From Halosimplex aquaticum (GTDB lineage: Archaea; Halobacteriota; Halobacteria; Halobacteriales; Haloarculaceae), in contig NZ_CP118158.1 of assembly GCF_028747785.1 (NCBI RefSeq), forward strand, positions 2,976,001 to 3,040,000: a stretch of 64,000 nt of DNA, written 5' to 3'. Below, one piece after another: positions 39,491-52,063 of this stretch. Position 1 is the first letter of the stretch, and the number at the start of each line of letters is the position of its first letter. Under the pieces are notes generated by a model that was given only the letters and a program-made list of their open reading frames with translations, had not been told where the DNA came from and did no database searches. Both the position numbers and the translations under genes were made by a program.

Positions 39491-40365
39491 AGTTTGGAAA
39501 ACGATCCACCGCCCTGGTACCCCTCATCCGCCCCCTCTGAACTCGCGAATTCTGGCCGCAGCAGGCCATTGAACCGTATAATCCGCGGAACTAACGTCCG
39601 GCTCTCGAGGGCCCTCTGACATCTCTCTGCACAGTCCGTTCGGATATTACAGTCGTATGGGCGTAATGCTCATGTGTCCTATCTCCCTCTCGGCTCTCCA
39701 GCCGCTCGTTGTCCGCCTGTGTCTCTGATAGGCGTAGAGAGAACGCATACACTCCATTCGAGCCAAAACGCCGGGCCTCTGTACAAGCGAACAGAAGTAC
39801 CGCCAATACCGGTCGAGGCAGGCCGCAAGTGCGTCTCTGAGCCGATTCTGGTCGCGTTCGTCCCGATACTAGATGGTTTCGTCTCCGCTGGGTCGAGGTC
39901 TACGATTCTATGCCGACTTCTGGGCGAATCAGGGGAACTCACTGGTCGACATCGGTGTCGAGACGATTCTCGCGCTCTCTTCATATCTAACTCAAATAAA
40001 GAAAGTTTCTATTATTGGAAACTGTCAGTTCCTGCGCGGATATACACGACTGATCTCGTGGTGAGCCGATGGAACGTGGGCAAGCGAGACCGCCTCCGGG
40101 GTTCCGTTCTCAGATCCCCTCGTCAGGCTAGTCGTCTGCACCCGCTACCCTGGGGAGCGCTGCCGGAGCACGTTCGACCAGATCCACGCGCTGGAACTGT
40201 CCGGAAGATCATGACCGGGCACGCGACCACGCGGAGGCCCACGGGCCGAACATCTCCGCGCGCAGTGCCACGTACCCACACGGACTGTCAACACTCTTTA
40301 CAGCAGGGTCGCAACACCCGGCATGGACAGACCGAGCGGTGGCGAGGCTGGCGGACTGACAACGT

Positions 40366-40560
40366 TTGAGCTACCCACCACTATCGCGGTGAGATTCAGC
40401 GTGAACTCCCGTTCTGGCCTCTAGTGAGGCAGGAGAATAGCCTCCGTTCGCGTTCAACGTCCCGCTGTTCAAGCGCACGCTCAAGGGCGCGCCTCCATCG
40501 CCTCCAGTTTGGTTGCGATGGAGATACCGCAAACCGATGTTCTTCGCGGCGTTGTAGTCA
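40366..40560 (-). ncRNA. candidate omegaRNA / sense-overlapping RNA of the tnpB element
   Basis: In TnpB systems the guide RNA scaffold comes from the 3' end of tnpB and the element's right end, with the guide just outside the element. This region covers the tnpB 3' end and a stem CACC-GCGATAGT-GGTG across the stop codon. In Halobacterium, IS1341-type tnpB genes are known to give sense-overlapping transcripts from the same position. If the right end is at 40366, the guide would begin ACGTTGTCAGTCC (minus strand, from 40365 downward). The 5' limit given here is a guess. Confidence 0.45.
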
Positions 40561-41624
40561 GCATGATTCTCGTAGCCGCATTTCAGACATCCGAATCTCT
40601 CGCGGTCGCGGTTCTTGGGGTGTGTGAATCCGCATTGTGAGCACCGCCGACTCGTGTTTTCGGGGGCAACCTGCTCGACTGCTATACCGTATTCTCTAGC
40701 TTTGTATTCGACGTACTCGTACAGGCGGTCGAAAGCCCACTTGTGCCCCCACGACGCCCCTGTCCGTTCGCGGATGCCGGTCAAGTCTTCGAACGCAATC
40801 ACGGAACACCCGTTTTCGCGGGCTTCTGCGACAAGTTCGTTGCTGATGCGGTGCAGCATCGACTTGAACCGTCCTGTCTCTTTCCGACCGACGGACTGGA
40901 TGTTCTCGTGTGCCCAGCGAGTTCCACACTGTTGCAGGTCGCCACGCCGATTCTCGTATTCTCTGCGCCAGTGGTCGAATTCATCGCCCGTCCAGAACGT
41001 GCCCGTCGAAGTGACGGCAAGGTTGTTTACGCCGAGATCAACCCCGAGAACCGCTCCGTTCTCGGATGTTGTCTGTTCCGACGTATCAGACTTCACCTCC
41101 AGTTTACAGTGGACATGAAGTACCCACGTGCCGTCACGGTAGTGTAGTTCCGCACCCGTTGTCTCATAGTCGTCCGAAAATAGGTACTCTGAGTGTGGAG
41201 TCTCACTGTCCTCGTCGGGTAGCACGTAGTCGACTTTGATGCGACCGTCGGTCGTGGCGAGACTCACATACTCGTCGTGGAACGTTGCGGTGCGGTGGTC
41301 GTAGACGACGTGTGGACTGGTGAAGCGTGGTTTCGACGCCTTTTTACCTTGCTTCCAGCGCGTAACGACACTCTTGCAGGCTTCAGTAGCCTTGTCGCGC
41401 GCGGCTTGCACCAGTCCACCGTTGAAGTTGTCCGTGGCTTCTCGTACGTCATCGTAGGTTTCCTCGTCTAGCGTGGTTTTGCTGGTGGTGACGTATTCAC
41501 CTTTGAAGGCGTGGTCTACAACGTATTGTGCAGACCAGAGGAACGTGTCTACGGTGTCTCTGAGGAGTGCGGCATCGTCTCTTTCCACGTCGAGAGCAAC
41601 GGGGACGGTACGCCGCATCTCCAT
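40371..41624 (-). CDS. tnpB: TnpB, RNA-guided endonuclease of IS200/IS605 elements
   Basis: A 417-aa TnpB. The RuvC catalytic triad is intact: Asp196 (GVDLGVNN), Glu279 (IAFEDLTG) and Asp356 ([11 protein letters not shown]). The zinc ribbon cysteines 328/331 (CSQC) and 346/349 (CLKC) are present. N-terminal OrfB-type helices and WED-like strands precede. TnpB cuts DNA guided by an RNA from its own element and helps the element persist. I chose the ATG at 41624 because a minus-strand TTTAACAA box is centred 27 nt upstream. An ATG 51 nt earlier is the alternative. The protein is less acidic and the gene lower in GC than its neighbours, as expected for a transferred element. Confidence 0.95.
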
Positions 41625-41646
41625 ATCTTCTATGTGGTGTGTTTGA

Positions 41647-41655
41647 TTGTTAAAT
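41647..41655 (-). promoter_or_regulatory. TATA-like box of tnpB
   Basis: Minus-strand CATTTAACAA centred at 41651, 27 nt before the ATG at 41624, predicting a leaderless tnpB mRNA and fixing the start choice. Confidence 0.5.
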
Positions 41656-41708
41656 GTAGGGAGTTGGCCTGCCATCGTTGCGAAATTGCAGTTTCAGTTG
41701 TCGACTTT

Positions 41709-41732
41709 ATCCCACGGCCCAAGCCGTGGGAT
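41709..41732 (-). repeat. left-end hairpin of the tnpB element
   Basis: Plus strand ATCCCACGGC-CCAA-GCCGTGGGAT, a perfect 10-bp stem with a 4-nt loop, upstream of tnpB. Subterminal hairpins of this kind are the TnpA recognition sites of IS200/IS605 elements. It could also stop transcription running between tnpB and ilvE. Confidence 0.8.
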
Positions 41733-41746
41733 CTCTCTTTGCGCTA

Positions 41747-41756
41747 TCTATAAATC
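41747..41756 (+). promoter_or_regulatory. TATA box of ilvE
   Basis: TCTATAAATC about 15 nt outside the tnpB left-end hairpin. Transcription should start near 41778, about 10 nt before the ilvE ATG. Confidence 0.6.
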
Positions 41757-41773
41757 GGGGGCGCCCATCACCG

Positions 41774-41779
41774 GGAGGT
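41774..41779 (+). promoter_or_regulatory. Shine-Dalgarno-like site of ilvE
   Basis: GGAGGT, 7 nt before the ATG at 41787. Whether it is inside the mRNA depends on the exact transcript start. Confidence 0.4.
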
Positions 41780-41786
41780 ACGACCC

Positions 41787-42725
41787 ATGACCGAGCGCCC
41801 AGAGATGTTCCAGGGCGTCGACGAACTCTGGATGGACGGCGAGTTCGTCGACTTCGACGACGCACAGATCCACGTCCTCACCCACGGCCTGCACTACGGG
41901 TCGGGCGTCTTCGAGGGCGTTCGCTGCTACGACACCGCCGACGGCCCCGCTATCTTCCGCTGGGAGGAGCACCTCGAACGGTTCTACCAGTCCGGCAAAC
42001 CCTACGATCTGGATATCCCCTTCGAACCCGAGGAACTCACCGAGGCGACCGTCGACCTGATCCGCCGCGAGGACCTGGAATCCTGCTACATCCGCCCCAT
42101 CGCCTTCTACGGCTACAACTCGCTGGGCGTGAGCCCGGGTGACTGCCCGACCCGCGTCGCCATCGGCGCCTGGCCGTGGGGCGCCTACCTCGGCGAGGAC
42201 GCCCTGGAGAACGGCGTCGACGTGATGGTCTCCTCGTGGCGCAAGCACGCTTCCAGCCAGATCCCGACCAACGCCAAGACGACCGGCCTCTACGTCAACT
42301 CCCTGCTCGCCACCGAGGAGGCCAAGGGCAACGGCTACACCGAGGCCATCGTCCTCAACAAGGAGGGCAACGTCGCCGAGGGCCCCGGCGAGAACCTCTT
42401 CCTCGTCCGCGACGGCGAGATCTACACGCCCGGTCTCGCCGAGTCAATCCTCGACGGCATCACGCGCCGTACCGCCATCGAACTTGCCGAGGACATGGGC
42501 TACACCGTCCACGACGAGGCGACCATCTCCCGCGGCGAACTGTACACCGCCGACGAACTGTTCTTCACCGGCACCGCCGCGGAGGTCACGCCCATCCGCA
42601 GCGTCGACGACAACGTCATCGGCGAGGGCACGAAGGGACCGGTCACCGACGAGATCCAGTCGCAGTTCTTCGACCTCGTCGAGGGACGGCTCGACGGCTA
42701 CGACGACTGGTTCACCTACGTCTGA
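41787..42725 (+). CDS. ilvE: branched-chain amino acid aminotransferase
   Basis: PLP-dependent class IV aminotransferase for the last step of Leu/Ile/Val synthesis, 312 aa. It shows HGLHYGSGVFEGVR near 33-46, the PLP lysine Lys164 (NAKTTGLYVNS), and the class IV signature EGPGENLFLVRDGEIYTP, plus FFTGTAAEVTPI. Length is normal. The start lies directly beyond the tnpB element, whose insertion has left the promoter intact. No other branched-chain genes are adjacent. Confidence 0.95.
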   Translation: MTERPEMFQGVDELWMDGEFVDFDDAQIHVLTHGLHYGSGVFEGVRCYDTADGPAIFRWEEHLERFYQSGKPYDLDIPFEPEELTEATVDLIRREDLESCYIRPIAFYGYNSLGVSPGDCPTRVAIGAWPWGAYLGEDALENGVDVMVSSWRKHASSQIPTNAKTTGLYVNSLLATEEAKGNGYTEAIVLNKEGNVAEGPGENLFLVRDGEIYTPGLAESILDGITRRTAIELAEDMGYTVHDEATISRGELYTADELFFTGTAAEVTPIRSVDDNVIGEGTKGPVTDEIQSQFFDLVEGRLDGYDDWFTYV

Positions 42726-49879: not shown

Positions 49880-52063
49880 ATGGGGAAGTTCCTCGGGGGG
49901 CCATCGGCAGTGCTGATCGTCGCCGGCGCCCCCGCGCTGGGCGAGTCGGTCGCGAGCGCGATCGAGCGACGGTCGTTCCCTTCGCCGGTCACCAGCGCGG
50001 AGGTCCGCGCAGCGGAGGCGACGGACCACGACCAGACCGTCGATTCGGTCGCCTGTTCGACCTGCGCCGAGGCGCTGGCGAGACTCGAATCGACCGAGGG
50101 AGTCGGGTGCGTCGTCGTCGACGACGCGCTCGCGGACCGGTCGGTCGCCGACTGCGTCGCGTCGATCGTGAACGAGCATCCGGACCTGCCGGTGGTCGTC
50201 TACGCGGCCGACGGCGACGAGGGGCTCGCGAGCGAGACGACGCGGGCGGGCGCGTTCGCGTACGTCCCTCAACCCGCCGACGCGGCGGCGGTCCCCGACC
50301 ACGGGGACCTACTCGACACCGTCGGCGAGGCGCTGGCAGTCCACGACCGGCGCTACCGCGCTGCGGTCCAGAGCGACATGCTCGACGCGATGTTCGACGA
50401 CCTGGGGGTCCCGCTGTACGTCAAAGACGACGAGGCTCGCCACCTGAAGATGGCCGACGTCCACGGCGCGCCCGACCCCGTCGACTCCATCGGGAAGACG
50501 GACTGGGAGCTGTACTCGTGGGACGACGAGTCGAAGGTCGAGGCGCTTGGCGACGACCGGCTGGTCATCGACGAGGGCGAGCCGATCCGCGAGCGCGAGG
50601 AGCGCCACGGGCCGCCGGATGCCGCCCGCTGGCTCAAGACGACGAAGGTCCCCTGGCGCGACGGCGACGAGGTCCGCGGGCTTGTCGGGATCACCCAGGA
50701 CGTCTCCGACGAGAAGCGCACGATCCGCGACCTGCGGGCGCGCAACCGCCGGCTCGACGACTTCGCCACCTTCGTCGCCCGGGACCTGCGCAACCCGCTG
50801 CACGTCGCGATGGCGTACCACGAGTTCGCCCGGGAGGGCGAGGAGGGCGCCGCCGAGACCGTCGCCGACGCGCTCGAACGCATGGAGGAGCAGATCGAGA
50901 GCCTGAGCGAACTCGCCACCTCCGGCGAGACGGCGCCGGCGCCCGTCGGCGGCGTCGAGTTCCCCACCTTCCTCCAGGTGGCGTGGGACGAGGTCGCGAC
51001 CGCGCGGGCGACCCTCGAGATCGAGATGCCGGCGGAGACGCGGCTGTACACGAACCGGCTCCAGCTCAAGCCGCTGTTCGAGCGCCTCTTCGAGAACTCG
51101 GTCGAACACGCCGGCCCGGACGTGACCGTCCGCGTCGGGCTCACCGGCGACGGCTTCTTCGTCGAGGACGACGGCCCCGGGATCCCGGAGGAGGAGCGCG
51201 AGGCGGTGCTCGAAGACGGCTTCACGTCCACGCCGACCGGCGCCGGAACGGGGCTGGCGATCGTCTCCGAGATCGCGGACACGCACGGCTGGGACTTCCG
51301 CATCCGCGAGCCTGGGGACGGCGGGGCCGCCGACGGGGGCGTTCCGGACGAGGGGTCCACAGGCGGAGACGAGGGGACCGCAGACGGGGGCGACGCGGCG
51401 GCGATCGGCGACTCCGCGTCCCCGGGCGTTCGCTTCGAGTTCGGAAACGTGCTGCTGGTCGCCGACCCGGAACCGGCCGGGGAGATCGGTCCGTCCCGCC
51501 CGCTCACGACCGGCACCGACGTCGGTGACGCCCTCAACACGGGCGAGTCCTCCCACGACGCGGCGACCGGTCGCTGGACGCTCAGCGCAGCGGGCGACAA
51601 CCTGATCGGGCAGACGGACGAGTTCCACTTCCGCTGGGCGGCGATCCGCGGCCCCTGTCGCGTCGAGGCGCGCCTGGCCGAGTTCGACCCGCCGGCCGAC
51701 TGGAGCAAGGCCGGCGTCATGATCCGCGACACCGCGACCGAGCGCGCGCCGTTCGGCTACGTCGGCGTCACCGGCAACGGCCGCACGGAAGTGCTCTGGC
51801 GCGCCGAGGGCGGCAGGCCGACGCGCCGGCAACTGCTGGAGAGCGGCGACCGCAGCTTCGAGTGGTTCGCGCTGGAGCGGACCGGCGACCGCGTGACCGC
51901 CTTCCTCTCGGCCGACGGCGAGGAGTGGCACGCCGTCGACCAGCGCCCGGTCGCGCTCGGCGAATCCGTCTGCGTCGGCCTCGCCGCCTGTAGCACCATG
52001 ATCGGCGCCTACTGCGAGGCCGCGTTCGAGGACGTGACCGCCGCCGAACTCCCCGGCGAGTGA
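49880..52063 (+). CDS. hybrid PAS histidine-kinase-like protein lacking the phospho-acceptor His, with C-terminal beta-sandwich
   Basis: A 727-aa cytoplasmic protein. Order: degenerate receiver-like domain (about 9-150), PAS domain (about 165-280), HisKA-like helix, HATPase domain with N-box LFENSVEHA, G1 DDGPGIP and G2 GTGLAIVSEIAD. In the HisKA motif the usual His is replaced: FVARDLRNP, Arg301 instead of His, so classical autophosphorylation is impossible at that site. A disordered linker is followed by a ~180-residue domain (FRWAAIRGPCRVEARLAEF..., DUF1349/laminin-G-like beta-sandwich). A CTTATC box fits the ATG at 49880. It has no response regulator neighbour. Confidence 0.88.
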   Translation: MGKFLGGPSAVLIVAGAPALGESVASAIERRSFPSPVTSAEVRAAEATDHDQTVDSVACSTCAEALARLESTEGVGCVVVDDALADRSVADCVASIVNEHPDLPVVVYAADGDEGLASETTRAGAFAYVPQPADAAAVPDHGDLLDTVGEALAVHDRRYRAAVQSDMLDAMFDDLGVPLYVKDDEARHLKMADVHGAPDPVDSIGKTDWELYSWDDESKVEALGDDRLVIDEGEPIREREERHGPPDAARWLKTTKVPWRDGDEVRGLVGITQDVSDEKRTIRDLRARNRRLDDFATFVARDLRNPLHVAMAYHEFAREGEEGAAETVADALERMEEQIESLSELATSGETAPAPVGGVEFPTFLQVAWDEVATARATLEIEMPAETRLYTNRLQLKPLFERLFENSVEHAGPDVTVRVGLTGDGFFVEDDGPGIPEEEREAVLEDGFTSTPTGAGTGLAIVSEIADTHGWDFRIREPGDGGAADGGVPDEGSTGGDEGTADGGDAAAIGDSASPGVRFEFGNVLLVADPEPAGEIGPSRPLTTGTDVGDALNTGESSHDAATGRWTLSAAGDNLIGQTDEFHFRWAAIRGPCRVEARLAEFDPPADWSKAGVMIRDTATERAPFGYVGVTGNGRTEVLWRAEGGRPTRRQLLESGDRSFEWFALERTGDRVTAFLSADGEEWHAVDQRPVALGESVCVGLAACSTMIGAYCEAAFEDVTAAELPGE

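What the first reader, a model, noticed from the sequence alone, without database searches (positions are those of the whole stretch)
40366..41745. Solo tnpB element with readable ends and a predicted guide RNA
TnpB keeps Asp196, Glu279, Asp356 and all four zinc cysteines, so it should still cut DNA. The left end has a perfect 10-bp hairpin. Just after the stop codon lies TCAA, the type of right-end tetranucleotide used by some IS200/IS605 elements. If that is the end, the guide would start ACGTTGTCAGTCC on the minus strand. No TnpA is present, so this is either an active guide-RNA nuclease locus or a domesticated one.
Basis: partly seen in the sequence, partly recalled or inferred. Interest (0 to 1): 0.75.

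Follow-up and report, generated by a model that had tools for sequence, protein, structure and literature searches.

The report
TnpB element with two RNA structures
A mobile element that encodes an RNA-guided DNA-cutting enzyme sits just upstream of an amino-acid gene of a salt-loving archaeon, and besides its guide RNA the enzyme's gene appears to carry a second conserved RNA fold in its middle whose role is unknown.

Summary
Confirmed. Window 40366-41749 (minus strand) is a solo tnpB element. The subfamily's left-flank motif is TTAT (32 of 36) with right end TCAA; a sister subfamily pairs TCAT (27 of 29) with TTAC. Catalytic residues are intact and the guide-RNA scaffold covaries in relatives. 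The genome has no Y1 TnpA; 6 of 7 congeners do. It is neither autonomous nor apparently domesticated: a known kind.

Not found in my literature searches: a second RNA-level zone inside the gene, codons 185-217 across the RuvC-I aspartate. Synonymous change is depleted two- to threefold among relatives, it folds unusually well in this copy (z -5.7), and hairpin pairs are kept with wobbles that fit the sense mRNA. A core 18-mer persists to about 41% protein identity; all 30 of 62 copies examined lie in tnpB. Selection and structure are supported by computation; function is inference, perhaps cis-control like that reported for AmaTnpB mRNA (PMC10278001).

The parts
40366..41749 (-). whole solo tnpB element
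   Evidence: uninterrupted site in L012-L019; ends conserved in relatives
40371..41624 (-). tnpB coding sequence from the likely start M18, 417 aa; the longest ORF begins at 41675
   Evidence: PF07282, PF01385, NF040570 above cut-off; stop upstream in 66 of 69 relatives
41709..41732 (-). left-end hairpin, 10 perfect pairs, loop of 4
   Evidence: sequence; the hairpin recurs in relatives
41750..41754 (-). left-flank motif TTTAT (subfamily core TTAT), the predicted TAM
   Evidence: TTAT in 32 of 36, TTTAT in 11 of 36
40366..40369 (-). right-end tetranucleotide TCAA
40366..40512 (-). omega-RNA scaffold, overlapping the 3' end of tnpB
   Evidence: model R2 match; 12 of 35 pairs with double changes in 59 sequences; synonymous constraint from about codon 388
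40346..40365 (-). predicted guide, 20 nt, ACGTTGTCAGTCCGCCAGCC
   Evidence: follows TCAA; equals the uninterrupted site of L012 at 18 of 20, first 16 identical
41025..41123 (-). internal RNA-level zone, codons 185-217, over the RuvC-I aspartate
   Evidence: synonymous constraint; fold z -5.69; strongest fold excess of the gene
41091..41120 (-). HP1, first hairpin of the zone, codons 186-195
   Evidence: pair counts on 74 rows
41025..41087 (-). P2, compound stem of the zone, codons 197-217
   Evidence: pair counts on 79 rows; model R1 match E 1e-18, a member of its own training set
41044..41065 (-). HP2, inner 8-pair hairpin with 6-nt loop
   Evidence: pair counts on 101 rows; co-changes on the tree
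41787..42725 (+). ilvE, branched-chain amino acid transaminase; a TATAAA 33-38 nt before its ATG spans the left junction
   Evidence: NF005146; sequence

Best explanation
A non-autonomous, IS1341-type solo TnpB element. TnpB binds an omega-RNA made from the 3' end of its own transcript (scaffold 40366-40512 plus flanking guide) and should cut DNA that has TTAT (here TTTAT) next to a match of ACGTTGTCAGTCC..., that is, the uninterrupted site upstream of ilvE. Cutting alleles that lack the element would let repair from an occupied copy keep it (known for other TnpBs, recalled). It cannot move by itself: this genome has no Y1 transposase, and the left end has drifted. The tnpB mRNA also carries a second RNA structure across the RuvC-I codons that is under selection in haloarchaea; my best guess is that it controls the mRNA or the TnpB/omega-RNA output in cis. 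Shown here by computation: ends, flank motif, residues, scaffold covariation, absence of TnpA, synonymous constraint and fold of the internal zone. Inferred: cleavage, retention, and any function of the internal zone.
For: Uninterrupted sites; TTAT/TCAA and TCAT/TTAC pairing of flank and right end; triad and cysteines; covarying scaffold; dN/dS 0.07-0.09; no Y1 in the genome. Internal zone: codon conservation in both subfamilies, dS 0.27 against 0.65 and 0.92 among 11 relatives, fold scan, z -5.69, -4.17 and -3.81 in three copies, P2 pairs 94.4% with 8 pairs changed on both sides (shuffles 4.7, 1/500), AC cells 13 against at least 29 in 300 shuffles, all 30 of 62 exact core motifs examined in tnpB.
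Against: No expression or cleavage data. This copy's left end is 7 edits from consensus and lacks the GAAAAC/GAAACC motif of 33 of 36. This copy's dS to relatives is higher in the internal zone (0.54 against 0.27 among relatives) and in the omega-RNA part (0.35 against 0.23), so RNA-level constraint may be relaxed here. The omega-RNA of this copy alone folds no better than shuffles (z -0.85). HP2 on its own has no more double-changed pairs than shuffles (2; 432/500), and cells with double changes (15) are exceeded by two slid controls (25 and 18). 206.1/209.3 is C.C in 51 of 148 rows. 203.3/211.3 shows no co-change on the tree. The GU count is not above the shuffles (198 against 205). No special pairing of the zone with the own omega-RNA.
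Confidence: 0.78

Rival explanations
1. The internal zone is not an RNA structure with a function. Codon choice there reflects translation (slow codons at the start of RuvC), short-tract gene conversion among copies, or amino-acid constraint that yields pairing by accident.
For: It lies at the start of RuvC; codons 206-209 occur as two haplotypes interspersed among genes of different identity; part of the HP1 pairing follows from the amino acids; the tree tests are small (5 to 10 independent pairs); codons 9-16 and 33-40 are also fairly conserved in subfamily A (0.83, 0.80).
Against: Intermediate haplotypes in which the pairs change separately; 207.1 and 208.3 change together in 8 and 10 independent pairs with none opposed (p 0.008, 0.002); AC cells below all 300 shuffles; synonymous shuffles fold worse there than elsewhere in the gene; halves of the gene agree about as well as neighbouring segments do (r 0.79 against 0.81-0.90).
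Confidence: 0.3
2. A decaying relic: ends and RNA parts drift and TnpB is no longer expressed or active.
For: Left-end drift, higher dS in both RNA-level zones, no TnpA in the genome, no direct evidence of expression.
Against: Open frame with triad and cysteines intact; dN/dS of this copy against relatives 0.07-0.09, like that among relatives; right-end hairpin keeps 8 pairs, two of them wobble.
Confidence: 0.2
3. A domesticated TnpB with a host role, for instance a regulator of ilvE.
For: Position at the ilvE upstream region; no TnpA.
Against: Absent at the same site in eight relatives; catalytic triad intact; close relatives lie at many other places with full ends.
Confidence: 0.04

Closest known systems
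IS1341-type solo tnpB elements of haloarchaea with sotRNAs/omega-RNAs (PMC12558985, PMC8303175, PMC3119063)
   Same: Solo tnpB, terminal hairpins, omega-RNA overlapping the 3' end, few or no tnpA in the genome.
   Different: The omega-RNA matches neither Rfam sotRNA family. I saw no mention of an internal structured zone in the passages and sections I read.
Solo tnpB elements of Sulfolobus islandicus (PMC10640517, passages)
   Same: Solo tnpB with predicted motif TTTAT.
   Different: Here the core is TTAT with TCAA (32 of 36), and a sister subfamily uses TCAT with TTAC (27 of 29).
[quoted passage not shown]
   Same: A stretch inside the tnpB mRNA near a RuvC catalytic codon with a possible role in cis.
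   Different: There 825-875 nt at RuvC-II, found by a cleavage assay and ascribed to pairing with the omega-RNA. Here RuvC-I, found by conservation and fold, and no special pairing with the omega-RNA.
ISDra2 TnpB (8bf8, 8exa)
   Same: Sequence match over residues 109-429, E 4e-9.
   Different: Distant sequence; ISDra2 also carries tnpA (recalled).

Membership tests
TnpB / OMEGA RNA-guided nuclease | TnpB profile with RuvC triad and zinc ribbon | tested here: met
   NF040570 170 bits against cut-off 100, PF07282 79.7 against 26.3; D213, E296, D373, C345/348/363/366
TnpB / OMEGA RNA-guided nuclease | structured omega-RNA at the right end, guide from the flank | tested here: met
   covarying scaffold in relatives, own copy matched by R2, of which it is a member; guide equals the uninterrupted site
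TnpB / OMEGA RNA-guided nuclease | RNA-guided DNA cleavage | not testable with these tools
   no assay
IS1341-type (solo tnpB of the IS200/IS605 kind) | terminal hairpins, fixed left-flank motif, no tnpA in the element, no target duplication | tested here: met
autonomous IS605 element | Y1 tnpA in the element | tested here: not met
   no PF01797 match in the genome; 6 of 7 congeners have one
domesticated or nuclease-dead TnpB (TldR-like, recalled) | lost catalytic residues and retention at one site across species | tested here: not met
   triad intact; site uninterrupted in 8 relatives
Cas12f | NCBIfam Cas12f2 model cut-off | tested here: not met
   117.2 bits against cut-off 450
Rfam sotRNA families RF02656 and RF02657 (names from PMC8303175) | covariance-model match | tested here: not met
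   no match at gathering in the window nor at E up to 5 in 40200-41800, where only speF at 15.9 bits was listed
mRNA cis-control as in AmaTnpB | an mRNA stretch that inhibits cleavage | not testable with these tools
   needs a cleavage assay
mRNA cis-control as in AmaTnpB | special complementarity of the stretch to the omega-RNA (the authors' hypothesis) | tested here: not met
   window at codon 185 has median rank 17 of 34 in 67 genes; the windows from codons 205 and 285 have the strongest means

The most novel reading that the evidence does not exclude
Haloarchaeal tnpB mRNAs carry, besides the omega-RNA, a second selected RNA structure laid across the RuvC-I codons. It acts in cis on mRNA processing, translation or RNP activity, so that self-control by the tnpB mRNA, seen in vitro for one bacterial TnpB, is an old and conserved trait in haloarchaea.
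Probability: 0.48. Interest if true: 0.68.

Novelty: new variant of a known kind. Interest (0 to 1): 0.5.

Why it matters
The element is a clean case of a stranded TnpB with guide, flank motif and empty site all read from sequence, ready for an interference test. The internal zone bears on a question left open in PMC10278001, namely whether control of TnpB by its own mRNA is conserved. The core motif is also present on Halobacterium salinarum plasmids PHS2 and PHS3, an organism for which the papers read here report RNA-seq data, so the idea is testable in a laboratory strain.

Tried and rejected
TATA-box targeting: the insertion splits a TATAAA upstream of ilvE, which suggested that the family seeks TATA boxes. 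Not a rule: strict TTTAT in only 11 of 36 members. Second target of the guide in this genome: with up to 3 mismatches over 18 letters, only the element's own junction and two plasmid places (3 mismatches each, all in the guide part) were found. Shuffling of gene halves at the internal zone: no excess discordance. Overlapping gene in another frame: one antisense frame is open in 156 of 169 genes, the other four in 121 or fewer; not pursued. Pairing of the zone with the own omega-RNA: not special. Literature: eight answered searches; I saw no listing that describes an internal structured zone in haloarchaeal tnpB, but listings are not full readings, the library lacks most subscription papers, and the 2015 sotRNA paper was not held. 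Structure prediction and fold search were not run.

Rows left out of counts. A1: 101 distinct of 148 contiguous rows, of 171 unique genes. A2: 74 distinct of 99 rows, of 116 genes at 57% identity or more. A4: 79 of 131 distinct rows, those at 66% identity or more; 34 of 171 genes were dropped for indels, gaps or N. A3: 59 of the 73 listed. Left ends accepted: 36 of 39 (TCAA kind) and 29 of 35 (TTAC kind). Fold scan: 80 of 159 genes. In one search the printed output was cut, so one of its six control comparisons (206.1 against 213.3) was not seen, and for another (206.1 against 211.3) only the raw list.

Full report
1. The locus. The window lies at C1:2976001-3040000 of a 5.16-Mb genome. A congener contig (G004:C1, 5199031 bases) has the length of NZ_CP058909.1, Halosimplex pelagicum, so the genus is probably Halosimplex (inference). 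The ORF 40371-41675 (-) encodes 434 aa, with PF07282, PF01385 and NF040570 above their cut-offs. M18 or M20 is the likely start, since 66 of 69 genes at 74% identity or more, this one included, have a stop just upstream.

2. Ends and empty site. ilvE (41787-42725; NF005146) is conserved, so its upstream region was compared in relatives. L012 aligns to window 40265-40365 and goes on at 41749 without the element; L013, L015 and L016 also show both sides, L014, L017, L018 and L019 only the right side by BLASTN. A MAFFT alignment of the joined window flanks runs through the junction in all eight. The minus strand reads CCCGATTTAT|AGATAGC...GGGTAGCTCAA|ACGTTGTCAGTCCGCC. The site in L012 reads GATTTATACGTTGTCAGTCCGCC, identical to the guide over 16 nt and 18 of 20; the other congeners match 15-17 of 20, L018 12, L019 9.

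3. Family. At E <= 1e-110, 83 of 146 genomes of the family have a relative. Exact right ends were found in 74 non-duplicate loci: 39 end in TCAA and 35 in TTAC. Left flanks: TTAT 32 of 36 accepted for the first kind (TTAG 2, ATAT 1, TTTT 1); TCAT 27 of 29 for the second (TCAC 1, ATAA 1). The scaffold alignment gives 35 consensus pairs, 12 with changes on both sides, in up to 26 sequences at one pair. Neither Rfam sotRNA family matches here. In S. islandicus, solo tnpB genes were assigned TTTAT (PMC10640517, passages).

4. Mobility. The genome has no Y1 transposase match; 6 of its 7 congeners do. This copy's left-end foot is 7 edits from consensus (median 2 of 38; L133 and L134 also gave 7 and were set aside), and the GAAAAC/GAAACC motif of 33 of 36 is missing. 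It is probably stranded. Strain-specific insertions of such elements were reported in Haloquadratum although all tnpA of one strain were pseudogenes (PMC3119063, passages), so help in trans or another route stays possible.

5. Selection on the protein. NG86 dN/dS of this copy against 11 near relatives is 0.092 (codons 20-180) and 0.073 (218-380); among the relatives 0.089 and 0.079.

6. A second RNA-level zone. Codon identity among sequences with the same amino acid rises in the omega-RNA part (from about codon 388) and also at codons 185-217, in both subfamilies; in subfamily A codons 9-16 and 33-40 are also rather high (0.83, 0.80). Mean dS among 11 relatives is 0.27 in the zone, 0.65 and 0.92 in the flanking parts and 0.23 in the omega-RNA part; for this copy against them it is 0.54, 0.88, 1.16 and 0.35, so constraint may be weaker here. 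Folding of 14-codon windows against synonymous shuffles in 80 of 159 genes gives the lowest means at codons 181 (-1.12), 201 (-0.92), 381 (-0.86, the omega-RNA edge) and 191 (-0.78). The 99-nt RNA of this copy folds at -43.4 kcal/mol, z -5.69 against dinucleotide shuffles; L041 gives -4.17 and L145 -3.81; the omega-RNA of this copy gives only -0.85.

7. Its structure. HP1 (codons 186-195): 84.6% of cells paired on 74 rows (shuffles 81.0%, 0/500; slid 40-45%), five pairs changed on both sides (shuffles 3.1, 18/500). HP2 (codons 204-211): 92.9% on 101 rows (89.0%, 0/500; slid 25-54%); but only two pairs are changed on both sides (432/500 shuffles reach that), and the 15 double-changed cells are exceeded by two slid controls (25, 18). 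The compound stem P2 (codons 197-217): 94.4% on 79 rows (91.1%, 0/500; slid 29-47%), 8 pairs changed on both sides (shuffles 4.7, 1/500; slid 1-4). As the structure came from these sequences, the slid control on paired cells is partly circular. GU cells number 198 and AC cells 13; shuffles give GU 205 on average and AC at least 29. Changes that would be wobble only on the opposite strand are thus avoided, which points to the sense mRNA, while GU itself is not in excess.

8. Trees built without the zone. 207.1 and 208.3 change together in 8 and 10 independent pairs, never in opposite ways (p 0.008, 0.002); they are loop neighbours (G.G or A.A), not a standard pair. 206.1 with 209.3: 7 pairs, p 0.03; 5 pairs, p 0.125. 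205.1 with 210.3: 5 pairs, p 0.125 in both. 203.3 with 211.3: 9 pairs, same way in 1.2 and opposite in 0.5, not supported. None of the control comparisons whose tests were seen reached a median p below 0.5.

9. Its range. GAGAACGGAACGGTTCTC occurs 62 times in 45 of 146 genomes, with no match of the reversed pattern in any row. All 30 places fetched are in frame in tnpB ORFs of 40.7-86.1% identity. Model R1 gave 23 matches at E <= 1e-3 in 8 genus genomes: all 17 fetched lie in loci with tnpB similarity, one of them a fragment; four more fall in tnpB coordinates; two were not checked. Three weaker fetched ones (L307, L314, L315) have no tnpB. The motif is not seen in three TnpBs from the same phylum but other orders at 30-34% identity (L290-L292). 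It is present on H. salinarum plasmids PHS2 and PHS3.

10. Meaning. PMC10278001 (abstract, passages, section 12) reports that 825-875 nt of the AmaTnpB mRNA, next to RuvC-II, inhibits cleavage, and asks whether this is conserved. PMC8303175 (passages, section 19) reports that sotRNAs are processed from longer transcripts and that Northern blots showed sot0042 but not the full-length tnpB transcript. A selected structure at RuvC-I would fit cis-control of the mRNA, but nothing here shows a function.

Noticed in passing
window 40323-40365 continued at 41750-41790: In relatives without the element a small ORF upstream of ilvE ends in ATGA overlapping the ilvE start: 11 of 12 loci examined have it (23-66 aa from the first in-frame ATG), with a shared tail TTYK...LTGRYD in the six congeners. 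The element interrupts it here; the same bases hold the TATAAA, so nucleotide-level conservation is an alternative.
   Followed up: partly
L041-L152 ends: Left-flank motif and right-end tetranucleotide vary together between two tnpB subfamilies: TTAT with TCAA, TCAT with TTAC.
   Followed up: yes
L044, L049, L056 left ends: Palindromic inserts in or beside the left-end hairpin, like the short mobile repeats said to insert in near-terminal palindromes (PMC3119063, passages).
   Followed up: no
G002 C1:50969-51627: In a congener a match of the omega-RNA model (50969-51114) is followed 165 nt later by a Y1 transposase (51280-51627), a possible source of TnpA in trans.
   Followed up: no
L124, L127, L128, L130-L132: A clade at about 70% identity lacks the TAGCTCAA/TAGCTTAC right end at the usual place.
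   Followed up: no
window genome C1:1826876-1831470: Two tnpB homologues of 46-47% identity lie about 2.2 kb apart in opposite orientation.
   Followed up: no
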